A DNA stretch of 64,000 bases from Piper betle (lineage: Eukaryota > Streptophyta > Magnoliopsida > Piperales > Piperaceae). The notes beneath the pieces were generated by a model. The model had not been told where the DNA came from and made no database searches. It worked only from the letters and a program-made list of their open reading frames with translations. The stretch's first letter is position 1. Each line of letters starts with the position of its first letter. The position numbers and the translations under genes were made by a program. Location of the stretch: assembly GCA_033002965.1 (NCBI GenBank), contig JAURVB010013123.1:124001-188000 (forward strand), in the 5' to 3' direction. Below, in pieces: positions 2,990-64,000 of this stretch.

Positions 2990-5027
2990 AATGTATTGCA
3001 TATACACATGTTGACAGGGAATCAAGAAGAAGCTTAACAAAGTCCGCAATGTGTATTTCTTGATATGGAGTGATGAGTATGGTTACCGGATATGATTTCG
3101 AGAACAACAGGTGTTTCGAAGTCGGGATGTTGTATTCAATGAAGAGTGCATGTACAAAGACATGAAGAAGAAAAGATGAGGGTCAAAGAAAAGAATATAT
3201 GGAGCTTGATGAGACAGATGAAAGATGCCAAGTGCTAAAATCAACGATTTGTTCAAGTGATGAGGAACAATTATCTTTGAAGAGACCGAACAGAAGGTGA
3301 GACAGGCTATCAACCAAATGATGATGAATCAGATTTGAATATTTGATGCCAAGTTAAATTGATGACTCAGAGCCACCACAAGAGATAGTTGTTGCTCCTG
3401 AACCAAGGAGAGCACAAGGGTTAGAACCTACTCAAAATTAAATTTAATTGTACAACATGTTTTGTATACTGATGCAGGAGAACCGGAGTCCTATGATGAA
3501 GCCATGAGTGACAAAGCTCATCTTAAGTGGGAGTTGGCCATGAAAGATGAGATGTCATCGTTGGAGAAGAATCATACATGGGAGTTGGTGAAGTTGCCGC
3601 CAAAAAGGAGGGTTCTATAAAACAAGTGGATCTATTGGGTCAAGTCTGAAGCCGGTGGTGTACAAAGGTATAAGGCAAGACTTGTAGTGAAAGGTTTTGG
3701 TCAAAAAGAAGGGATTGATTTTCATGATATATTTGCACCTGTTGTAAAAATGACTTCTATTAGAATTATTTTGAGTATTGTGGCTGTAAAGGGGTTGTAT
3801 TTAGAGCAGCTTGATGTAAATACAGCTTTCCTTCATGGTGATTTGGAGGAGGAGATCTATATGGAACAACCAAAAGGATTTGAAGTCAAAGGTAAAGAAA
3901 ATATGGTGTGCAAATTGAAGAGGAGTCTATATGGACTCAAACAAGCACCAAGACAGTGGTATTTAAAATTTGACAAGTTTATGTTGGATAATGGATTTGC
4001 TAGGAGCAATTCGGACCACTGTGTATATCTACAAAAGTTTAATGATGGGGATTACATTATTTTAACTTTGTATGTAGATGACATGCTTGTTGCAGGGACT
4101 TGTATGGAGAAAATTATTAGTCTCAAGATGAGGTTAGCCAAGAGTTTTTCCATGAAGGATTTGGGTGAAGCAAAACAACTTCTTGGGATGCAAATTACCC
4201 GAGACAAGAAGAACAAGAAGTTGTGGTTATCTCAAGAAGGGTATGTGAAGAAAGTTCTTGAGAGATTCAACATGAATGAATCCAAGCCGGTGACTACTAC
4301 TTTGGGTAGTTTCCAATTGTCCAAAGAACAAGGTGCTAAGAGTGAGGAGGATAAAGCTCACATGAAAAAGGTGCCTTATGCTTCAGCTATTGGAAGTCTT
4401 ATGTATGCTATGGTGAGTACAAGACCAGATATTGCACATGCAGTGGGAGTAGTGAGCAGATTCATGATGAACCCAGGAAAAGAACACTGGGAGGCAGTAA
4501 AATGGATTTTCAGGTACTTGAAAGGAACTTCTAATTACTGTTTGTGTTTTGAGGGTGATAATATTGATGTGCAAGGTTATGTGGACTCGGACCATGCTGG
4601 AAATAGAGACAATGGCAGGAGTACATCCGGATACATCTTTACAGTTGGTGGAACCGCGGTGAGTTGGGTTTCCAAATTGCAAAAGATAGTTGCTCTGTCT
4701 TCAACTGAGGCTGAATATGTGGCTGCTACAGAAGCTAGCAAGGAATATATTTGGATTAAAACTTTAATGAATGAGTTAGGTTTTAATGGGGTTGATTGCA
4801 GGTTGTACAGTGATAGTCAAAGTGCAATCCATTTAGCCAAGAACTCGGCATTTCATTCTAGGACCAAACATATTCGGTTAAGGTATCATTTTATCAGATC
4901 TTTGTTAGAAGAACGTAAATTGAAGTTGGAGAAGATAGATGGAAAAAATAATCCGGTGGATATGTTGACTAAACCGGTGGATGGAAAAAAGTTGAGTTTT
5001 TGCTCAACTTTGGTGAACTTGCACTAA
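2990..5027 (+). pseudogene. Copia-1 polyprotein remnant (IN tail, RT, RNase H)
   Basis: This is the 3' half of a Ty1/copia polyprotein. About 3040-3190 carries a decayed integrase C-terminal stretch (YGYRIW, then RSRDVVFNEECMYKDM) with frameshifts. From about 3480 the reverse transcriptase frame is open except for one TAA at 3618-3620. The long open stretch (3687-5027) holds QLDVNTAFLHGDLEEEIYM, SLYGLKQAPRQWY and the catalytic YVDD of RT, followed by Copia RNase H (SSTEAEYVA, the DSQSAIHLAKN block and TKHI). The true start lies upstream, beyond the window, since the family 1 LTR replaces the gag/protease/integrase side. One stop plus the frameshifts in the integrase part make it non-functional, though RT and RNase H are well preserved, suggesting a fairly young insertion. 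Confidence 0.93.
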
Positions 5028-22794: not shown

Positions 22795-22987
22795 ATAATA
22801 TGGGAGAGAACTAACTACAAACGCTCAGGATAAATATTTATATCTGTACAAATTGTCTTCGTCCAAATTTGTCACCGCACCCCTCGGCTCAATCATGACG
22901 GTTAACCCAGCCAGTCGTGGTTGAACCCGTGGTTATGCCTAATTTAATAGAAATAAGATACGTGAGATTTATTCGGAAGGAGGGAAA

Positions 22988-23076
22988 GGGGTGGAAGCCG
23001 GAACACCAAGCACCAAGGGGTGGAAGCCGGAACACCAAGCACCAAGGGGTGGAAGCCGGAACACCAAGCACCAAGG
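22988..23076 (+). repeat. 29-bp tandem repeat, three units
   Basis: Three near-perfect copies of a 29-bp unit beginning GGGGTGGAAGCCGGAACACC, upstream of the LTR TATA-like box. The 3' LTR has the same three units (about 26720-26808) with one C to T change in the middle one. Confidence 0.95.
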
Positions 23077-23112
23077 GGTGCATGTGTTGGCGTGCAGCAC
23101 TTCAGCCGGGTG

Positions 23113-23123
23113 TCTATATAAGG
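23113..23123 (+). promoter_or_regulatory. Putative LTR TATA box
   Basis: TCTATATAAGG is identical in the 3' LTR (near 26845) and sits downstream of the 29-bp repeats, the expected U3/R position. Confidence 0.6.
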
Positions 23124-23584
23124 AGATGTTATCCTTGTGTAGAGGGGGAGAAAAACAAAATCAGATCAAAAGTGATCAAGTGTGGGTGAGTGCCTCCCTG
23201 CGTGGAGATGTGAGGTAGTGTCGGGTAAGGGGGATTGCCGGTGTGTGGCTGCAACCAGCCTTGGTCGGGGCCAAGTGCTGGGCACACCCGGTAAGCTGTC
23301 GGTGCAGCGTTGTCCACCTGTGACCGAACCATCCAGTTCTATTCCAGCAGCCTCGAGCCTGCGTGCCGAGTGCTGGGGAAGTCCTGTCGAGTGTGTGTGT
23401 CGAAATGGCCATCCCACCGAGTGCATAAGAATTGTCTAAGTGTTATTGGATACTTGTGACTCTTTAGTCTCATCCCGCTGTCTCTTTGCGCGGCAAGGGC
23501 GCCTCGGTCCCACCGAACCCTTCCAACCCGACGCGGGAACACTCTAACCCGCACCAGCGGACGAACCCGCGCCCGAACATAAAT

Positions 23585-23602
23585 TGGCGACTCCACTGGG
23601 GA
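23585..23602 (+). other. Primer binding site of the GAG-PB1 element
   Basis: TGGCGACTCCACTGGGGA lies 5 bases after the 5' LTR end. It begins TGG as expected for pairing with a tRNA CCA end. Similar sites in Tat/Ogre elements are, from memory, assigned to tRNA-Arg; this was not checked. Confidence 0.8.
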
Positions 23603-23753
23603 CCGTCAAGAGGTAGCAGTGCGGTTTGAAGAGATAGTGTGGATAAAAGAAAATGGCGCCGGAAACAAGGAATGCGACACGCCAAAGGAACGCGCTAATG
23701 AAGATGACCCATCCACATCAACTCAAGGAAGGCAAAGAGAATTGGAAGTAAAC

Positions 23754-25445
23754 ATGGAAGCAAGCCAGCACATTGCGGGAAATGTGCGAGAAAGAATTCA
23801 ACAGCTGGAAGCAGTGTTGAATGAAGGAAATGAAGGAGGAACTACTCCAAGTAGAAGCATGATGAGACGGGAAGAAAATAGCCAAAGTCCAAAAAGCAAT
23901 GAGGAGATGAACCAAGCATCACAAGTCGGACAAATACTTTTGACGCAATCAAATCAGCTAAGTGGAGGACAAGTGCAAAATGAAGCAATTGAAGAGAGAT
24001 TCCGCCGAAGTGAAGAGCGGATGCAACGGATTGAGGATATGATGCAACAAGTGCTCGCCCAAATGCAAAGGGCTAGTGCTGCAACCGGGAGCTCGTCGAA
24101 AAGAGAAGACGACCTTCCCACCCAATGTCCAACAATGGACCAACCCCTGGAGGCTAGAAAGATGTTTTCAACCTCCACAAACCCAATTGGATCAACCTCA
24201 TTCCCAGCTACCGAAACAACTACTACTACATTGAGGGATCAAGCCAACATCCCTCATGAAATTAAAAATTTTTCTTTGATTTCAAGTACTGAGTCCATCC
24301 ACCAAACATCTACTTCATTGTCCAAACCAAGTTGGATGAAAGACTATCCAACTATGCAACCAAGTCGGACCGAGCATAGTTTGCTTCCCCACTCAGCATG
24401 GTTTCCACAACCACCATACTACCAGCCAACATACCCGTATCGGTGGTATGACCCTGCATTCTCTCAACAACCACCTTCCATGGTGTTCTCACCATCAATT
24501 GCAACCACAATGCCCATCCCAGCAATGCCAACAAGTCAAATACCAACCATACCAGTAGCACCAATGTCAGATATTTATTATGAAGAATTGAAAGCTGAAA
24601 TGGATGCACAAGCCGCACTTATAAGTGCATTGATTGGGAAGAAAGACAAAGAACCTAGTAAAGTTGTAAAGCGTCTTCGTCCTTTAGCCGATGAAGTTTA
24701 CACGGAAATTTTGCCGGAAAAATACAAGCGCCCAACTTTTACGAAGTTCGATGGAGACGGCAATCCGGGAGATCATGTCACAATTTTTGAAATTGAGTGT
24801 GGAACAATTGTGGCAAATGAAAAATTAAAGTTACAACAATTCCCGGCATCACTTAGCGGTAATGCCTTGAGATGGTTCAATAACCGCCCCTCTGGATCAA
24901 TCAATTCATGGGATGAATTTGTTGAGCAGTTTACAGAACACTTTCAATCCATGGAAATTCCAGTGACAATTGAGCACTTAAGACAGTGTCGAAGGGAATC
25001 GGGTGAAGAATTTGCTACATATGTGAAAAGATTTAGAAGTCTGTCATCTCAAATGAAAGAGACCCCTGACATTAAGGAGCTTGTGAAGATTTGTGCAATG
25101 AACGCCGGATCAGCTGCATGGTTCTTAAGTGGTGCACAATGCAACACTTTTGAACAATTGTTTGAAAGGATGTTGATTTTTGAAGAACTTGGAAGGGTTT
25201 CTGCTTCTCTGAAAAATGCTAAGGCATCAACCAATGCTGTCACTGAACTTGGAGAATCAAGTCGGGAAAAACAATTGGAAGGGCCAAGGAATAACAATGA
25301 AGATAGAAAGGCTGCGCCCCGACAACGGCGTGAATGGAGAAATATGGAAGATTACACCTTCAACACTAGAGATACTGAGAGATGGTTCGACGTGTTGACA
25401 GAGCAAAGGAAAAATCACTCCCTGGATACCGAAGAATCCACCTAA
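23754..25445 (+). CDS. GAG of the non-autonomous element
   Basis: An open frame of about 563 codons from ATG 23754; the frame is open upstream to about 23600, but only GTG is available there. An N-terminal glutamine- and glutamate-rich helical part is followed by a Pro/Thr/Ser-rich linker (about 24180-24560). A retrotransposon gag core follows (about 24740-25180): KFDGDGNPGDH, ALRWFNNRP, INSWDEFVEQFTEHF and SGEEFATYVKRF. It would form the particle shell that packages element RNA. The frame ends at 25445, but the natural continuation (FCRFHQMLGHPT, a zinc-binding-like C/H motif typical after Tat gag) is in another frame, so a single-base frameshift lies near 25405-25420. Whether that is mutation, programmed shift or sequence error cannot be told here. 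Confidence 0.88.
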   Translation: MEASQHIAGNVRERIQQLEAVLNEGNEGGTTPSRSMMRREENSQSPKSNEEMNQASQVGQILLTQSNQLSGGQVQNEAIEERFRRSEERMQRIEDMMQQVLAQMQRASAATGSSSKREDDLPTQCPTMDQPLEARKMFSTSTNPIGSTSFPATETTTTTLRDQANIPHEIKNFSLISSTESIHQTSTSLSKPSWMKDYPTMQPSRTEHSLLPHSAWFPQPPYYQPTYPYRWYDPAFSQQPPSMVFSPSIATTMPIPAMPTSQIPTIPVAPMSDIYYEELKAEMDAQAALISALIGKKDKEPSKVVKRLRPLADEVYTEILPEKYKRPTFTKFDGDGNPGDHVTIFEIECGTIVANEKLKLQQFPASLSGNALRWFNNRPSGSINSWDEFVEQFTEHFQSMEIPVTIEHLRQCRRESGEEFATYVKRFRSLSSQMKETPDIKELVKICAMNAGSAAWFLSGAQCNTFEQLFERMLIFEELGRVSASLKNAKASTNAVTELGESSREKQLEGPRNNNEDRKAAPRQRREWRNMEDYTFNTRDTERWFDVLTEQRKNHSLDTEEST

Positions 25446-25488
25446 ACCGGAAGATGAAAAGAAAGAGAATTTTTGCCGGTTTCATCAA

Positions 25489-26496
25489 ATGCTTGGCCAT
25501 CCAACGGTGATATGTCGAGATGTGATGGAAAAGATCCAAGAGTTGCTGGACAAAGGAGATATAAAGTATAAAGCTGCTAATGCTAATGTGATGACAGTAA
25601 GCCACTTATCCTTACCAATGAAGTCTCATAAAGGAAAAGAGAAACAAGGAGAGGAAATGGATGTCCCGATGGCTAATGTTGAAGACACAAAGGTGTCGCC
25701 TGCTTCCACTATAGAAGATAAAGGATGTTCTACACCTCTATCAATCCAAAAGTTTGAAGTCCAAGCTAATCAAGGAAAAAGACTTTTCGAAAAAGATGAG
25801 CTTGATAAAGAAAAGATGGAAGATCAGCTTGCTGTCAGAACAACTTCAACACAAAAGGAAGTCAAGTCAAAGATCTCAAAAACAAGACTTCGCTTGATGT
25901 GCAGCTTTGGCGGAAAGATAGTAATCCAGGGAAGGAAGCAACACTACTTTGGAGGAGACACACGACTGGTTGTACTGGAGCATGATTGTTCTTATTCAAG
26001 TCTTGTCGCCCAAATCAGGGGTACATGTTCTACCAGCATCCCTTTGGTGATTAAGTGTCAGCTACCCGGTGAAAGCTTCAATTACCTTATCACAATCGCC
26101 AATGATGAAGACTTGGTAAATGTAATCAAAGAACAAGAGGAGTTCAACACAAGTCATGAATCAACATCTCGTCTCCACTTCTTCGTGTCACCAAAGATGT
26201 CAAGATCGCAATCCAACCAGACATGGGACAAGAAGTTGGGGGCTCCAATCAAAATCACTGCTGCTAGAAGGTTTAAAAGAGAAGCAGCCAACAACTCAAC
26301 AAATAGTAGGAGGCATCATAAAAGATCAAGGTCACCTCCATACTATGGGCAGAAGAAGTTTGATGCCCTAAGGAAAAATCCACAAAAAGAAATTTGGATT
26401 TGGAGGCCACGAGTGTCGAGTGAGAGAGTCACTCCTCAAGATCAAAATGATGGTCAATGGCCACACTATAACCCACGAGGAGTCACCTTAGGCTAA
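25489..26496 (+). CDS. Second frame of the element, with PB1-like domain
   Basis: A 335-codon frame (first ATG 25489; open from about 25420). Residues 1-30 continue a Tat-type gag tail (HQMLGHPT with Cys before and after). A charged linker follows. Residues about 132-236 (25882-26197) read as a plant PB1 domain: RLRLMCSFGGKI at the first strand with a basic residue cluster, YFGGDTRLVVL, SSLVAQI, then the acidic OPCA-like part QLPGESFNYLITIANDEDL. PB1 domains mediate protein-protein binding in plant kinases, ARF/IAA and NLP factors; the GGKI...GGDTR...LPGE...DEDL pattern matches the plant PB1 kinase type. The C-terminal tail is basic (RRHHKRSRSPP). PB1 is not part of known Tat polyproteins I recall, so capture from a host transcript is inferred. 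Confidence 0.82.
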   Translation: MLGHPTVICRDVMEKIQELLDKGDIKYKAANANVMTVSHLSLPMKSHKGKEKQGEEMDVPMANVEDTKVSPASTIEDKGCSTPLSIQKFEVQANQGKRLFEKDELDKEKMEDQLAVRTTSTQKEVKSKISKTRLRLMCSFGGKIVIQGRKQHYFGGDTRLVVLEHDCSYSSLVAQIRGTCSTSIPLVIKCQLPGESFNYLITIANDEDLVNVIKEQEEFNTSHESTSRLHFFVSPKMSRSQSNQTWDKKLGAPIKITAARRFKREAANNSTNSRRHHKRSRSPPYYGQKKFDALRKNPQKEIWIWRPRVSSERVTPQDQNDGQWPHYNPRGVTLG

Positions 26497-26538
26497 ATTA
26501 TGAAAAAAAAAAAAGAATGAAAAATGAATAAAAATGTT

Positions 26539-26586
26539 TTGCCGATTCTTCTTTCTCAGATTGCGAAAAATCGGCAAGGGGGCTGA
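26539..26586 (+). other. 3' leader and polypurine tract of the GAG-PB1 element
   Basis: GCAAGGGGGCTGA directly precedes the TGTTCG start of the 3' LTR. The preceding 40 bases form an 8-bp inverted repeat (TTGCCGAT/ATCGGCAA, 26539-26577) and align closely with 63857-63902 of the Tat element. Confidence 0.85.
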
Positions 26587-27308
26587 TGTTCGTCCAAATT
26601 TTTCACCGCACCCCTCGGCTCAATCATGATGGTTAACCCAGCCAGTCGTGGTTGAACCCGTGGTTATGCCTAATTTAATAGAAATAAGATACGTGAGATT
26701 TATTCGGAAGGAGGGAAAGGGGTGGAAGCCGGAACACCAAGCACCAAGGGGTGGAAGCTGGAACACCAAGCACCAAGGGGTGGAAGCCGGAACACCAAGC
26801 ACCAAGGGGTGCATGTGTTGGCGTGCAGCACTTCAGCCGGGTGTCTATATAAGGAGATGTTATCCTTGTGTAGAGGGAGAAAAACAAAATCAGATCAAAA
26901 GTGATCAAGTGTGGGTGAGTGCCTCCCTGCGTGGAGATGTGAGGTAGTGTCGGGTAAGGGGGATTGCCGGTGTGTGGCTGCAACCAGCCTTGGTCGGGGC
27001 CAAGTGCTGGGCACACCCGGTAAGCTGTCGGTGCAGCGTTGTCCACCTGTGACCGAACCATCCAGTTCTATTCCAGCAGCCTCGAGCCTGCGTGCCGAGT
27101 GCTGGGGAAGTCCTGTCGAGTGTGTGTGTCGAAATGGCCATCCCACCGAGTGCATAAGAATTGTCTAAGTGTTATTGGATACTTGTGACTCTTTAGTCTC
27201 ATCCCGCTGTCTCTTTGCGCGGCAAGGGCGCCTCGGTCCCACCGAACCCTTCCAACCCGACGCGGGAACACTCTAACCCGCACCAGCGGATGAACCCGCG
27301 CCCGAACA
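26587..27308 (+). repeat. 3' LTR of the GAG-PB1 element
   Basis: 722 bp, TGTTCGTCC to CCCGAACA, nearly identical to the 5' LTR and with the same 29-bp repeats and TATA-like box. Confidence 0.92.
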
Positions 27309-27700
27309 ACAATCCTTAAGAGCCTATAGATAGCAAGAATGGACAAAAGTACATGCAGACACGATTTAAGCATAAGTTTATGATAAGCAAGTAAACACCA
27401 ATAAAGTAAGCAAAGAAAATAGACAATAAGAACTCAAATAATTGTGTGTGTGTGTGTGTGTGAGAGAGGCATAACATGTTTTATTTCAAATTGCTTCTTG
27501 TTTTGGTGAACAAATTAAATGATGCAAGTAGTGAAATTGCTTGAAACTTGATAGTACTTTAACTCCCAATAGCGATCAAGTCAAGAATAAAAGAGTTAAG
27601 CAAGTTTATAAACAAGTGAATATAAATAGAAACACAAGAACACTAGAAAGGAGAGGGGAGAAAATACAAACAAGTATTTGAAGAGGTTCCCGACTGGTAT

Positions 27701-29418: not shown

Positions 29419-31647
29419 ATCGTTCGTTTTTTCCCCCCTCCCCCGTTTTCTCCTGCCCAGGGCGCTGCCCCCTTGCCGGATTCTGCCGCCCCGCCCGCCA
29501 CCGCCGCCCCGTCTGCCACCGCGACCCCCGCCCACAGCCCTGCCCCCACCCCGCGCCCCGTCCGCCGCCGCGTCCCCCCGCCCGCAACCTTCCCCCCTGT
29601 TTCCACTGCCCCCTCCGCCGCCTTGCCCCCGCCCACCCCTGCCCGCAGCCGTCCCCCCCACCGCCCCTGTTTCCCCTGCCCCCTCCACCGCCTCGCCCCC
29701 ACCCGCCCCTACCCGGTTCCCCGCCCCCCGCCGCCTGTTTCGCCCCGCCCCCGCCGCGGCCCGGCCCGCCCCTGCCCTGTTTTCGCCACCCTCCCCGGCC
29801 GCCCGTTTCGCCCGCACCCCGGCCGCCGCCCCACCCGTCGACCAAGCTCCTCCCCACCGTCTGCTGCACTGGCCACCTCCACGCCGGCGTCACCTGCTTC
29901 ACCGCCGGCGGTGGCGCGACAAAACACCGGGAAAGAAGGAGCAATGGCATTTTCGTAATAAAAATTTGACTCGCTCCTTGACTCGAGTCAAATTTACGAA
30001 ATAAATTTTAAAAATAAAATATAATAAAATAAAAACTTGACTTGCTCCTGACTCAAGTTAATTTTATAAAATAAAATTTTAAAATAAAATAATATAAAAT
30101 AAAATTTTGATTCGCTCCCCGCTGACGCCGCTGCTTGCCGACCACCTCCCTGCCGCCACCCACACCCTGCCCCCGCTCCCTCGCGTCGTCTCCCCGATCT
30201 CAACTGAAGTCAAATTAAAAAATATTATTTTATATTTTTAATTTATTTCATAATAATTTTTAATTTTTTTAAAAAATACAAAACTATAAAATAAAATATT
30301 ATAAAATAAAAACTTGACTCGATCCCGATCTTGACTAGAGTCAAATTAATATTATTGAATAATTTTTTTTAAAAATAATTTCGTAATAAAAACTTAACTC
30401 GAGTCGGGATAAAGTCAATAATATGAAATAAATTTAAAAAATATAAGATAATTTTGTAATAAAAACCTGACTCGATCATGTGCGGGACCGAGTCAAGTTT
30501 TTATTACAAAATAACTTTATTACTGAATAAATTTTTATTACAAAATAAATTTTAAAAAAATAAAATAATTCCGTAATAAATTATTTTAACTCGAGTCCGA
30601 TTAAGTAAAATTTTTATTACCAAAATACTCTCCCCTATTTCTTCCTCATTTTTTTGGCGTGCCACCCCTGCCGGCGACCTTGCGGCCGGCAGCCCGCTGG
30701 CCAACAATGTCACCGCCTAGGGGCTGGATGGGCCTGGTGGGAAATGTACGGCGCCGGTCTCGTGTGGGACGGAATAAAGTTTTTATTACAAAATTATTTT
30801 ATTTTTTTAAATTTATTTCGTAATATTGAATCGATCTCGTGCGAGATCGAATCAAGTATTTATTATAAAAAAATTTATTTTTTTAATTTATTTCGTAATA
30901 TTAACTCGAGTCAGGGAGGCGATCGGCAAGCGGCGACGTCGGCGGGGAGCGGTTCAAATTTTTATTTTATGTTATTTTATTTTAAAATTTTATTTCGTAA
31001 AATTGACTCGAGTAAGGAGCGAGTCAATTTTTTTTATTATATTTTATTTTTAAAATTTATTTTGTAAATTTGACTCGAGTCGGGAACGAGTCAAATTTTT
31101 ATTACGAAATTGCCATCGCTCCTCCGTTCCCCGTCGCGCCACCGCCGGCGGTGATGCAGTGACGCCGGCGTGGAGGTGGCCAGGGCAGCAGACGGCGGGG
31201 AGGAGCTCGGTCGACGGGCGGGGCGGCGGCGGGGGTGGGGGCCAAACGGGCGGCCGGGGAGGGTGGCGGAAACAGGGCAGGGGCGAGCGGGGCCGCGGCG
31301 GGGGTGGGGCGAAACAGGCGGCGGGGGGCGGGGAACCGGGCAGGGGTGGGGGAACACGGGGCAGGTGGGGGGAGGGCTGCGGGCAGGGGTCGGGCGGGGG
31401 CGAGGCGGAGGAAGGGGCGGCGGCGGAGGGGGCAGGGGGAAACAAGGGAGGTCGGGGGGAAGGATGCGGGCGGGTGGCGCGGCGGCGGACGGGGCGGGGG
31501 GAACCAGGGCAGGTGGGGGGGAGGGCTGCGGGCGGAGGCGGGACGGGGCCAGGGGCCGGGGCCGGCGGCGGGCGGGGCGGCGCGGCGCGGCGCCGACGTG
31601 CTACAGTGAACAGGGGAGGAGGAGAGTGTAAAAAATATATTATATCC

Positions 31648-37460: not shown

Positions 37461-37672
37461 CTAACCGAAGCTAATAGAAATTGAAAGCGCAACACCTAAT
37501 GTAGGAGAGAGGTAATTACAAACGCTTAGCAAAAATAGTTAGATCTCCACAATCCTTAGAGGCCTTATATAGATTGCAAGAATGAACAAAAATGCGGAAA
37601 CAATTTAAAAACAAGTATATGTTAAGCAAGTAAACACCAATGAAGTAAGAAAGGCAAATAGACAATAAGAAC

Positions 37673-37701
37673 TAGTAGTAGTAGTAGTAGTAGTAGTAGT
37701 A

Positions 37702-37741
<40 letters not shown>
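37673..37741. repeat. (TAG)n microsatellite
   Basis: About 22 TAG units with one interruption (AGTATAG), inside the Copia-2 5' LTR. The left LTR has a (TG)n run at the matching place (27444-27462). Confidence 0.97.
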
Positions 37742-37742
<1 letters not shown>

Positions 37743-38292
37743 TGAGTGCGCGTGTGTGTGAGGCACAACAAGTTCTAATCCAAATTACTACTTGTGTTGG
37801 TGAACAAGTTAAACTATACAAGTAGTGAAATGACCTAAAACTTAATAGTACTTAACTCCCATTAGTAATTAAGTTAAACATAAGAAAGTTAAGTAAGTGT
37901 ACAAATAAGTATATATAAATAAAAGCACAAATACATTAGTAAGGAGAGGGAGAGAACACAAACAAGTTTTTTAAAAGTTTCTAGACTGGTGCATCCTCTC
38001 TTATATCTAGTCCTTTGGTGAGTAGGTCTTCGTAACCCCACTAGGCAAACCAACTTGTAACTTTACAAGCAACCAAGCTAGCTTGATGATGATGATAAAC
38101 TATAAATCTAAAATATTATGGAAGTACTTAAATTATAAAAATTAATGGAAATATATTAGTTGCCTTTGGATCATCACCAAACATATATAAAAAGATACAT
38201 AGGAAAAAAAATCACAATTTAAAACAATATGTGGCAAAAATAAGATAATTTTAATAGGGAAATCACTAAACAATAAATATAATGAAAGTCAC

Positions 38293-59788: not shown

Positions 59789-59884
59789 TGTTTGCACAGA
59801 TTTATGCTTATTCTGTCACGTGGATAACTTTCGGGATTTGTACTTATCTAGTTACGTGGATGACTTCTGTGCCTCAGATAAAAA
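59789..59884 (+). repeat. Truncated 5' LTR of the Tat element
   Basis: TGTTTGCACAGATTTATGC and the next 90 bases match the 3' LTR start at 63903. A roughly 40-bp unit ending GTGGATAACTT is repeated twice within it. The match stops near 59884, where RT sequence begins abruptly, so LTR remainder, gag, protease and the RT active site are deleted. Confidence 0.85.
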
Positions 59885-60993
59885 GTCTGGGTGGTTACAA
59901 GTTGAATCCACAAAAATGTGCTTTTGGTTTTTCATCAGGACAAGTTCTCGAATTTTTGGTACACGAGCGAGGAATCCAAGTTGACCTTGCCAAAATTCAA
60001 GCTATTAGGGATATAAGTCCACCTACATCTTTGCGTCAATTGCAAAGCTTCTTGGGAAAGGTTAATTATATTCGGAGGTTTATCCCAAACTTGTCATCAA
60101 AAATTTTATCACTCACTCAATTGTTGAAGAAAGGTAACAAGTTTGAGTGGGGGAAGCATGTGAGCGAGCCTTTGAGGAGATAAAAGACAGGATTGCTAAG
60201 GCTTCCAACTTTACTTGCTCCATTGCTACATAGATCACTCATCTTATATATTTCTCATACAGAAGCAACACTCACAGCTATCTTGGCCTAGGTTGACGAC
60301 CTTGGGAGAGAACAACCTATGTATTACTTAAGCGGAGCTATGATTTCAATTGAACAAAGGTACACAAAGATAGAGAAGCATGTTTAGCCTTGGTGTTTGC
60401 TTTGCAAAAATTGCGATATTACTTGCTCACACATGAAGTACATTTGGTGGTACACAACAATCCTGTTTGATACCTACTCCAACAACCAGCCTTGTCTGGA
60501 AGAGCAGCAAGATGGCTTTGGAAGTTAATGGAGTTTGATATCAAGTGTGTCACACAAAAAGCAGTGAAAGGTCAAGCAATTACCGAGCTACTCGCCAACC
60601 ATTCAGCTCTATCACAAGAAAAAAAAGAAGTCTAGTTCAACATGGATAAAGAACTACTAAAATGGACTTTGTATTTTGATGGAGCAGCTATGGGAATGCA
60701 CGGAGGAGTAGGACCCATTAGAGGAGCCCGAGTGGTCTTAGTAGAGCCTTTAGGAAAGATGCATTTACATGCTTACAATTTAGCATATTTTTGCACCAAC
60801 AACAATGCAGAATATGAAGCAATGTTGCTTGGACTGTTGCTTGCAAAGGATTTGAAAGTGGAATACTTGCTAGTTTTAGGTGACTCATTATTGGTAGTCC
60901 AACAAGCCGAAGGGAATTTTGAAGTTAAGGAAGCACATTTGGTAGTGTACAAGGCACGTTTGATGCAATTATTGAAGAATTTCAAAGAAGTGA
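59885..60993 (+). pseudogene. Tat-lineage pol remnant: RT tail, RNase H, second RNase H
   Basis: 59885-60180 encodes the RT connection (LNPQKCAFGF, SLRQLQSFLGKVNYIRRF). A decayed gypsy RNase H follows (PMYYLSGAMISIEQRYT near 60315). 60642-60993 encodes a second, archaeal-type RNase H (WTLYFDGAAM, NNAEYEAMLLGL, GDSLLVVQQ). Two RNase H domains mark the Tat lineage of Ty3/gypsy. Several stops lie between the parts. The frame ends where the solo LTR inserted. Confidence 0.88.
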
Positions 60994-61076
60994 TGTCTAA
61001 AACCCCGATTTTCTCCTTATCCTATTATATTTTCGAAGACGAAAATTCCCACGTTGAGCAGATTGTAAAACTTTGA

Positions 61077-61077
61077 A

Positions 61078-61110
<33 letters not shown>

Positions 61111-61111
61111 T
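61077..61111. repeat. (AAT)n microsatellite
   Basis: About 11 AAT units. Confidence 0.97.
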
Positions 61112-61882
61112 AGACTATTTTATTTAGGGTTTTGTAAATCTTAAGAACGAACCATAAATAATATTTAACTAAATTAATTCTTAAGAATCAATGTTGACCT
61201 TTATCATATTGGTACAATAATATTTATGAATGATTTTAAATAAATTTTGTTTATTGAATTTTTGGGATTAGGAGTTGTGAGTGCGATTTAACATTCATTC
61301 ACATTAAGTCAATAATAAGTTTTTGACTTTTCATTATGAAACTAATTGTTGATATTTAATATAATTATTTGTGATTACGTTCTTTTCTATAAAATTTAAT
61401 GCAATACCTTCTTGAATTCCACACATATTAATAAAATTTAATGTAGTGGCTTCTTGAATTCTACACATATTCTTTTATATAAAGGAGAGTTTTGTTGATG
61501 TTAAATGAAACATCCTCTAGATAGTTTGTGAGCACATTTGACTCACAAAGGGAATGCTTTAAGATCATCTGTCATAGTTGTGGGTTTCTTATCACAATAC
61601 CAGGTCCATATAATTACTTGAAATATTGTATATTTTGATTTGGGAGTCTTGATCGGCTTGAGCCCACATTCAATCACCATGCGCCGAGTGCAATTGGGGT
61701 CAAAGAATTGGCTTAGTCTAACAAAGGGCAACACCCTTAAAATTCTTGAAAGATTAAATATTTGCCCCCATGCCGAAAGGGGTGACAGGGCGCAGTGGCG
61801 CAAGACGGCTCATATGCATTTGTGATTCCGAGAGGGTGAGTCAATGGAAAATATCGGTAACTACAGGCCAAGGGCCACATAG

Positions 61883-61929
61883 CAAGTGTGCGCATACATG
61901 AGATTGTAGTTGGATGGGTGACCACCCTC
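61883..61929 (+). other. 5S rRNA-like stretch inside solo LTR
   Basis: CAAGTGTGC, a spacer, then GTAGTTGGATGGGTGACCACC parallel the plant 5S rRNA internal control region (AAGCGTGC, GTAGTACTAGGATGGGTGACC). It is too short and altered to be a 5S gene. Similar 5S-derived pieces are known in Cassandra LTR elements. Confidence 0.5.
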
Positions 61930-62320
61930 CTAGTATATTAAGAGCTCAGCATAGGTTCATAATCACTAAAAGACGTAATTCAGATGTTGTGGAATAGATT
62001 AATTATTTCTTGTAATTATATGACTTAGTGTTTTATCACTAACGCAGAATTGCCTCCGCAGGTATGAGCATGGAAGGATGGGTAGAGTTGGGATAGTTGG
62101 AGGACTCTGTTATTGTAGTATTATTTTTTTCTAGATTGCTTGCATGAGAGTGGGATTTTGGTTTGGTTCATGGGGCTTAGATTATTCCTAGCATTTGTAT
62201 ATTAAATTTATTGCTATGGATTTATTTAAAATTTTGTAATTAATAAAAAATTAATTTATGAGACGTTTAGTTTCATATACTAACACTTGGCTCATGGCTC
62301 AGAACAGGCGGGTCGTTACA

Positions 62321-63794
62321 TGATGTTTGAACATATCCCTCGCTATACAAATTGTATGGTGGATGCACTCACCATATTGGGATCAAGATTCATTGCTAAA
62401 GAAGAAGTCATAGAGCTAATTATTTGGTTTGCTCGTCATGATGCGCCTGCTGGTGTAGTCTTATCGTCAAGTGTTGTAGTTGAATGCTTTGCACTAGATG
62501 AGTTTGAGGATTGGTATGGAGATATCATCAACTTTTTGGCAGGCAACCAACTACCCAGTGATCGATACAAGGCTTGTGAAGTGCGACGAATTGTTGCACG
62601 TCATTTAATTGAAGGGGAATTATTGTATCACCAAGGATTTGATGGAGTCTTACTACGGTGTTTGACCAAGGAGGAATGTTTGAAGGCTATGAGAGACGTG
62701 CACGACGGGATTTGTGGAGAGCACCAAGGTGGAAGAAGGTTGTATCACCTTTTGCTCGCATCGGATACTTTTGGCCAACAATGTATAAGGATTGTATGGA
62801 TTTTACTCAATCATGTGAGAAGTGTTAGTTGCATGCACCTTTAAGGCATATGCCACCAGAATCATTCCACGCGATTGGCGCTTATTGGCCATTTCAAATT
62901 TGGGCGCTTGATTTTATCAGTCCCATGCATCCATTATCATCAAAGGGTCACAAGTTCATCTTAGGATTTTATTAAGTAGGGTGAAGCAATACCAGCAAGG
63001 AAACAGCAAGGAAACAGACAGGAGAGTGTGTTGCTCAATACATCAAAGAAAATATCATCTGTCGGTTTGGAGTTCCCTAGAAGCTTATTACGGATAATGC
63101 ACGCCATTCATGGGATGGCAAGTGGCAGAGTTAGCCGAACATAGATTTGAAATGGTACAATCATCACCATACAACCCCCAATCTAATGGACAAGTGGAAT
63201 CTTTCAACAATATTTTAAAACAAATATCATGAAAGATGGTGGTAGATAATCAACGAGATTGGCATGAAAGGTTATCTGAAGCATTATGGTCATATCATAC
63301 TTCCGCACTTGTGAGTAACGGAGTTACACCTTTTTTGTTAGTGTATGGGATGGAAACTATCTTGCCTTTAGAAGTAGAGTTACCTGGCACTAAGGATGGC
63401 CACCACTTCACATTTATCACCAAAGCAGGCGGAGTATGTAGCAAGTAAAATTGTGTCACTCGAAGCAATTGATGAGCATCATCATGCTGCAGGGGAAAAG
63501 TTGAAAAGGTATCATGAAACAATGACAAGGAAGTACAACCAAGACATTGAACTCCTCAAGTTCAACCTTGAAATGTTAGTATTATGCAACACCCGTGAAG
63601 TTACGGCTGGGTTGCCAATGTTCAAATTTTCCCCATCATGGGAAGGGCCCTATGTTGTGAAGCGAGATATTGGTAAAGGTTGCTATGAATTGTCAGCAAT
63701 TGATAGAGATTCCTTGTTCCAAGTTAATGTGAGATACTTAAAATTTTGGCAAGACCCTGTGACAAGAGGTCACACCTCATCGAATAAAGCCTAA
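62321..63794 (+). pseudogene. Tat-lineage integrase remnant
   Basis: The frame continues from the second RNase H (HIPRYTNCMVDAL) into the integrase zinc-binding part (CLTKEECLKAMRDVHDG, GEHQGG), the core (WALDFISPMHP near 62910, ITDNA near 63090) and the C-terminal part (63396-63794; WEGPYVVKRDIGKGCYELS). Stops and frameshifts break it at about 62825, 62970 and 63075-63230, so it is inactive. Integrase inserts cDNA into chromosomes. Confidence 0.88.
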
Positions 63795-63856
63795 ATAGTG
63801 CATAGATGGATTGATGTACAATGTACATAGCAAAAAACAAATGCAAATTATATTTT

Positions 63857-63902
63857 TGCAGATTCTTCTTTCTGAGTTGGCAAAAAATTGGCAAGGGGGC
63901 TA
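63857..63902 (+). other. Tat 3' leader and polypurine tract
   Basis: GGCAAGGGGGCTAA immediately precedes the LTR start at 63903. About 46 bases here align with the same region of the GAG-PB1 element (26541-26586). Confidence 0.85.
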
Positions 63903-64000
63903 ATGTTTGCACAAATTTATGCTTATCTGGTTACGTGGATAACTTCCGAGATTTGCACTTATCCAGTTATGTGGATAACTTCTGTGCCTCGGAGAAAAAC
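63903..64000 (+). repeat. Tat 3' LTR, start only
   Basis: TGTTTGCACAAATTTATGC onward, cut by the window end; matches 59789-59884. Confidence 0.9.

What the first reader, a model, noticed from the sequence alone, without database searches (positions are those of the whole stretch)
25882..26197. PB1-like domain carried by a gag-only LTR element
Seen: between gag and polypurine tract, residues 132-236 of the second frame show the plant PB1 pattern (GGKI, GGDTR, LPGE, DEDL). Known: PB1 domains form head-to-tail complexes in plant kinases and transcription factors; TR-GAG elements usually carry only gag. Inferred: a host transcript piece was captured and kept, perhaps letting the particle protein dimerise or bind a host factor. 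LTRs are nearly identical, so the element moved recently with this cargo.
Basis: partly seen in the sequence, partly recalled or inferred. Interest (0 to 1): 0.88.

Follow-up and report, generated by a model that had tools for sequence, protein, structure and literature searches.

The report
Jumping gene carrying a signalling domain
A recently inserted plant jumping gene that makes only a particle-shell protein also carries, joined to that protein's tail region, a protein-binding domain that looks taken from plant signalling proteins and has since lost two key binding residues.

The parts
22848..22853 (.). 5' flank ACAAAT, one base longer than the 3' flanking ACAAT; likely degenerate target-site duplication
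   Evidence: sequence; the related unoccupied site reads ACAAT once
22854..23579 (+). 5' LTR (TG...CA)
   Evidence: 722 aligned columns with the 3' LTR, 4 mismatches, one 2-bp gap
23585..23604 (+). primer-binding-site-like stretch TGGCGACTCCACTGGGGACC
   Evidence: sequence; likeness to a tRNA-Arg 3' end is recalled, not computed
23619..25445 (+). ORF1: gag N-terminal part and capsid (608 aa)
24840..25061 (+). Retrotrans_gag match (E 8e-14)
   Evidence: residues 408-481 of ORF1
25399..25442 (+). overlap of the two open gag frames (offset +1); gag is split here in this copy
   Evidence: stop-free intervals
25489..26496 (+). ORF2 from its first ATG (335 aa; frame open from 25399): linker, PB1 and basic tail; the knuckle straddles its start
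25471..25512 (+). CHHC zinc-knuckle-like motif C-x2-H-x4-H-x4-C
   Evidence: sequence in the ORF2 frame; what the motif stands for is recalled
25885..26193 (+). PB1 domain (model residues 8-110; Pfam core 25936-26184)
26074..26082 (+). S-x-N at the two OPCA core acid positions (residues 71 and 73 of the modelled stretch)
   Evidence: acid in 59/61 and 61/61 other proteins; S and R in P0025
26302..26337 (+). conserved part of the basic tail (NSRRHHKRSRSP)
   Evidence: shared with P0025
26576..26586 (+). polypurine tract AAGGGGGCTGA
   Evidence: sequence
26537..26601 (+). PPT region and 3' LTR start, 84.6% identical to 63854-63918 of the Tat-type fragment
26587..27308 (+). 3' LTR
27309..27313 (.). 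ACAAT, 3' target-site copy
37482..37673 (+). related unoccupied site: joined flanks match continuously across the junction, 78.1% over 201 columns
59789..64000 (+). degraded Tat-type element (RVT_3 match within 60642-61073; LTR starts at 59789 and 63904); possible relative of the helper lineage
   Evidence: RVT_3 E 2.6e-10; LTR starts

Best explanation
A Tat-related, gag-only LTR element acquired the PB1 domain of a plant Kinase-derived-type PB1 gene and fused it in frame behind the zinc knuckle of its Gag, where an autonomous element would continue into protease. The fusion (PB1 plus a basic tail) was then kept as a protein while its acidic binding face was altered. Likely working: Gag-PB1 forms or joins particles, enzymes come in trans from autonomous Tat relatives that share the end signals, and PB1 serves as a protein-contact module on Gag through an altered, non-canonical surface. 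Shown: PB1 profile and modelled fold, one frame holding knuckle, PB1 and tail, a young insertion, kinship to one PB1 subgroup, loss of the OPCA core in two sequences. Inferred: capture from a host gene, trans-mobilisation, and any role in the particle.
For: PB1 by profile and fold. Gag by Pfam; knuckle, PB1 and tail in one 365-codon open frame. ORF1 and ORF2 fill the interior, leaving no room for pol. Near-identical LTRs and a related unoccupied site. PPT and LTR-start identity of 84.6% over 65 bp with a Tat-type element, E 1.9e-15 for that pair, and that element's RVT_3 match. Window and P0025 form a 100/100 clade inside an 8-row set (95/99) of the 61-row tree. The alpha1-beta3 span is 17 residues in exactly those 8 of 63 rows. 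P0025: 51.7% over 147 residues; next by E-value P0008 35.2% over 108, and P0010 40.9% over 110; only the P0025 match was seen to carry on into the tail with the shared motif. Drift to that divergence without constraint left 28 of 2000 simulations free of stops, mean 3.9 stops.
Against: This copy's gag is frame-split, so it would make Gag without PB1 unless recoded. No second gag-PB1 copy was seen; P0025's contig was not readable, so its link to gag is unknown and it could be a host gene. The database holds predicted proteins, which favours stop-free relatives. The tree has few columns (101), its bootstrap had not settled, the window is among its long end branches and the stem of the window/P0025 clade is 1.17. 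A clade with P0004 and the RAF-like P0007 is not rejected (p-AU 0.41). The model's alignment was made of PB1 proteins, so it is not independent of the profile hit. Tat kinship rests on one short match and recalled motifs. The target-site duplication is imperfect.
Confidence: 0.7

Rival explanations
1. Passive hitchhiker: the PB1 is a transduced fragment with no role, as in many LTR-captured gene pieces; the element would move as well without it.
For: Captured fragments are common in plant LTR elements (passages of PMC3726574; of PMC13317346). The gag frame is split in this copy.
Against: P0025 keeps PB1 and tail at 52% identity without a stop (28 of 2000 drift simulations). The OPCA and hairpin changes shared with P0025 show a long common history apart from the other proteins, though not necessarily in an element.
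Confidence: 0.2
2. P0025 is a host gene, and the element captured PB1 plus basic tail as one already remodelled unit from a relative of it; the changes predate capture.
For: P0025 was seen only as a 157-aa ORF on a 1121-bp unnamed contig, with no gag seen. The search admitted only proteins of about 55-184 aa, so longer host genes with this tail could not appear.
Against: None of the 61 other aligned proteins lacks both core acids; the stem is long (1.17), as expected of an element-borne protein. P0025 stands for one sequence on one contig and has no annotated source.
Confidence: 0.25
3. PB1 works canonically: the Gag-borne domain makes head-to-tail chains or binds host PB1 proteins through OPCA and lysine, helping particle assembly.
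For: The modelled fold is kept; the first E and the later DED are kept in the window.
Against: Both core OPCA acids (acid in 59/61 and 61/61 others) are S and N here, S and R in P0025; this PB1 class is reported to lack the beta1 lysine (PMC7051960 section 12), a position I did not map on the model.
Confidence: 0.1
4. The stretch is an ordinary part of Tat Gag-Pol (protease or an extra ORF) that merely resembles PB1.
For: It lies where protease would follow; elements of this superclade often carry extra ORFs (PMC6317226 passages).
Against: Pfam PB1 above cutoff and no protease match; PB1 fold; nearest kin found are PB1 proteins.
Confidence: 0.03

Closest known systems
[quoted passage not shown]
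   Same: LTRs, PBS-like site, PPT, gag, no pol
   Different: carries a host-type PB1 domain in frame with gag's C-terminal part
Bs1 of maize (LTR element with transduced host gene segments)
   Same: host coding sequence inside an LTR element (PMC13317346 passages)
   Different: Bs1 took segments of a proton ATPase, a xylan endohydrolase and a beta-1,3-glucanase gene; here one complete interaction domain follows Gag's knuckle
MUSTANG-B (MUGB) genes
   Same: plant transposon-derived protein that gained a PB1 domain, probably by transduplication (PMC3435246 passages; PMC8616336 passages)
   Different: domesticated DNA-transposon gene with the PB1 in a 5' exon; here a retroelement Gag with the PB1 near its C-terminus
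Plant Kinase-derived PB1 proteins
   Same: QLP before OPCA, C-S-x-G-G-K-I start, loop length of one subgroup
   Different: the 61 other aligned proteins keep at least one of the two OPCA core acids and 59 keep both; the element has S-x-N
[quoted passage not shown]
   Same: extra coding capacity in the same superclade, some with recognisable domains (PMC6317226 passages)
   Different: those eORFs lie outside the polyprotein, and the domains named in the passage seen (plant mobile domain, Transposase_28, Athila ORF-1) do not include PB1; the supplementary list was not readable

Membership tests
PB1 domain (PF00564) | profile score above the curated cutoff | tested here: met
   37.5 bits, cutoff 23.6
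PB1 domain (PF00564) | ubiquitin-like beta-grasp PB1 fold | tested here: met
Type-1 (OPCA-bearing) PB1 | OPCA core D-x-D/E | tested here: not met
   S-x-N, and S-x-R in P0025; others acid 59/61 and 61/61. Speaks against a type-1 PB1, not against the fold
Type-2 (lysine-bearing) PB1 | conserved lysine in beta1 | tested here: inconclusive
   R at residue 10 (K or R in 58/58 others) and M at residue 12 (L or M in 61/61); which is the canonical position was not mapped
Kinase/Kinase-derived plant PB1 | QLP just before OPCA | tested here: met
   QLP at 26059-26067; definition from PMC7051960 section 12
Kinase/Kinase-derived plant PB1 | groups with such proteins in a tree | tested here: inconclusive
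   95/99 set of 8 rows and a shared 17-residue span, but a grouping with P0004/P0007 is not rejected (p-AU 0.41) and the six proteins were not assigned to the published families by name
TR-GAG | LTR pair, gag, no pol domains | tested here: met
   definition recalled (Chaparro 2015 not held), name seen in passages of PMC10552921
TR-GAG | only a gag domain | tested here: not met
   PB1 also present
TR-GAG | multi-copy, mobilised in trans | not tested
   The genome search did not complete
Tat clade of Ty3/gypsy | additional (archaeal-type) RNase H in the polyprotein | not testable with these tools
   the element has no pol; the neighbour at 59789-64000 has RVT_3
Tat clade of Ty3/gypsy | end signals shared with a Tat element (my own criterion, not a published definition) | tested here: met
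   84.6% over 65 bp at the PPT/LTR start; suggestive only

The most novel reading that the evidence does not exclude
There is a lineage of plant LTR elements whose Gag ends in a PB1 domain taken from the plant Kinase-derived PB1 family and remodelled by losing the OPCA core. In it PB1 has become a particle-specific contact domain, for example one that holds the helper's Gag-Pol or a host factor by a new surface: a signalling domain turned into a part of a retroelement shell.
Probability: 0.33. Interest if true: 0.7.

Novelty: new variant of a known kind. Interest (0 to 1): 0.52.

Why it matters
Non-autonomous gag-only elements must get enzymes from others, and how their Gag finds helper proteins is an open question (recalled). 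A Gag that has taken up and kept a dedicated protein-interaction domain would give a testable handle. It would also be the LTR-retroelement counterpart of the PB1 acquisition known from MUGB transposon genes. The loss of the canonical face in both sequences points to a changed function rather than a frozen host copy.

Tried and rejected
First protein search with ORF2: 561 candidates, none at E<=0.001; region 128-240: 11 candidates, none at E<=0.01. Only the third search, with a two-row alignment, worked (124 hits of 137 candidates, 120 listed). Viral contigs with ORF2: 14 pattern matches, no relative. With the gag capsid part: 1 of 85 pattern matches, L001, whose ORFs look like a bacterial prophage; rejected as chance. 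The two-row PB1-tail alignment A2: no relative in genome contigs (35 pattern matches) or viral contigs (18). PDB sequence searches with the window protein: no PB1. Rfam (gathering threshold) and ARAGORN on the window: nothing. Considered and rejected: PB1 as a misread protease or standard Tat stretch. A programmed frameshift at 25399-25442 was considered and could not be tested.

Rows dropped: alignment A3 holds the window and 62 of the 120 listed hits, picked by eye mainly for coverage, with two near-duplicates (P0016, P0033) left out. Of its 63 rows, 61 entered the tree (at least 80 residues in the core). The acid counts use the 61 rows of A3 other than window and P0025.

Literature: six searches paired PB1, octicosapeptide or Bem1p with retroelement terms. 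Their listings (2, 13, 1, 15, 12 and 15 papers; the last three are the top of 5719, 1162 and 898 papers that held only some of the terms) show no paper that I recognised as describing PB1 in a retroelement Gag. Of these I opened passages of PMC8616336, PMC9848658, PMC3435246, PMC6421318 and PMC3726574. Four further searches were on TR-GAG, gene capture, Tat elements and PB1 evolution. Supplements were not readable and most subscription papers are not held.

Full report
What is there. The window is plant nuclear DNA (it holds spliced genes that look like a cytochrome P450 reductase and a PTC52/PAO-type oxygenase; names recalled, not searched). At 22854-27308 lies an LTR element. Its LTRs align over 722 columns with 4 mismatches and one 2-bp gap, about 0.0056 substitutions per site; a further 2-bp difference lies at their very start. 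Joined flanks match a related, unoccupied stretch at 37482-37673 continuously across the junction, 78.1% over 201 columns. The 3' flank begins ACAAT and the 5' flank ends ACAAAT, so the target duplication is imperfect.

Coding part. ORF1 (23619-25445) has a Retrotrans_gag match, E 8e-14. The second frame is open from 25399 to the stop at 26494, overlaps ORF1's frame at 25399-25442 and is offset by +1. Its first part holds C-x2-H-x4-H-x4-C, a knuckle-like motif that normally belongs to the C-terminal end of Gag (recalled). Knuckle, linker, PB1 and a basic tail therefore form one frame, and gag is split in this copy. Whether by mutation or recoding cannot be told. Between ORF2's stop and the polypurine tract about 80 bases remain, so there is no protease, RT, RNase H or integrase. 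No second copy of either ORF lies in the window (tblastn).

Where it comes from. In a tree of 61 rows the window and P0025 form a clade (100/100) on a long stem of 1.17, inside an 8-row set (95/99) with P0010 (Prunus), P0044, P0050 (Sesamum), P0052 (Pistacia), P0053 and P0068. The program warned of few columns (101), an unsettled bootstrap and a long end branch for the window. The span from helix 1 to strand 3 is 17 residues in exactly these 8 of 63 rows; gap length is not used by the tree, so this is a separate character from the same sequences. A clade with P0004 and the RAF-like P0007 instead is not rejected (p-AU 0.41), so the subgroup is likely, not proven. QLP before the OPCA motif marks the Kinase and Kinase-derived plant PB1 class (PMC7051960, section 12).

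A relative that shares the tail. P0025 (157 aa on a 1121-bp unnamed contig) is 51.7% identical over 147 residues; the next by E-value is P0008, 35.2% over 108, and the closest of the P0010 subgroup is P0010 itself, 40.9% over 110. The P0025 match continues beyond PB1 into GA-x-IKITA ... REA ... NSRRHHKR-x-RSP. P0025 itself scores as PB1, E 5.9e-9. Both have a hairpin two residues shorter than in 60 of 63 rows; P0035 shares that length. Both have lost the two OPCA core acids: residue 71 is acidic in 59 of 61 and residue 73 in 61 of 61 other proteins; the window has S and N, P0025 S and R. The first E and the later DED remain in the window (DEN in P0025). Unconstrained drift to this divergence left 28 of 2000 simulated sequences without a stop, so coding constraint is likely; a database of predicted proteins biases this. 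P0025's contig could not be read, so it may be another element or a host gene.

Helper lineage. At 59789-64000 lies a degraded element with an RVT_3 match (E 2.6e-10), which I take for the additional RNase H that marks the Tat clade (PMC6317226 passages). Its polypurine tract and LTR start match the element's at 84.6% over 65 bp, E 1.9e-15 for that pair; no other match between the two stretches was better than E 0.25. This suggests, but does not prove, that the gag-PB1 element uses Tat-type enzymes in trans.

How it most likely works. Gag-PB1 would be made from intact copies (none seen), assemble with or beside an autonomous Tat Gag, and be copied by its enzymes. PB1 stands where protease would start and adds a folded contact module. 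With the OPCA core gone, and the beta1 lysine reported absent from this PB1 class, ordinary head-to-tail pairing is unlikely; a non-canonical surface, of which PAL OF QUIRKY is a plant precedent (PMC7051960 passages), is the better guess. This step is inference.

Known or new. PB1 gained by a plant transposon protein is known from MUGB (passages), host segments in LTR elements from Bs1 and from genome surveys (passages), and gag-only elements as TR-GAG (passages). A survey of plant PB1 proteins names eight families, none a retroelement, and 'transpos' occurs 0 times in its main text (PMC7051960: section 10 and word counts). A survey of plant LTR elements names eight polyprotein domains and has no 'PB1' in its main text. 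Six literature searches that paired PB1 names with retroelement terms listed no paper that I recognised as describing Gag-PB1. I call it a new variant of a known kind.

Limits.

Noticed in passing
59789-64000: Degraded Tat-type Ty3/gypsy element with RVT_3 and an LTR start at each end; by eye, unrelated sequence seems to interrupt its pol region at about 61077-62290.
   Followed up: partly
3480-5027: Ty1/copia-like reverse transcriptase/RNase H ORF (446 aa, 3687-5027), apparently truncated; identity recalled, not searched.
   Followed up: no
27310-27700 and 37482-37990: The element sits in a repeat with a 78-81% relative at 37.5-38 kb and weaker ones near 57.8 and 48.2 kb.
   Followed up: partly
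29680-29893 / 31159-31372: Large inverted repeat, 214-nt arms, 89% complementary, GC-rich; may be a foldback element.
   Followed up: no
22986-23080: Short tandem repeat with a 29-bp period inside both LTRs.
   Followed up: no
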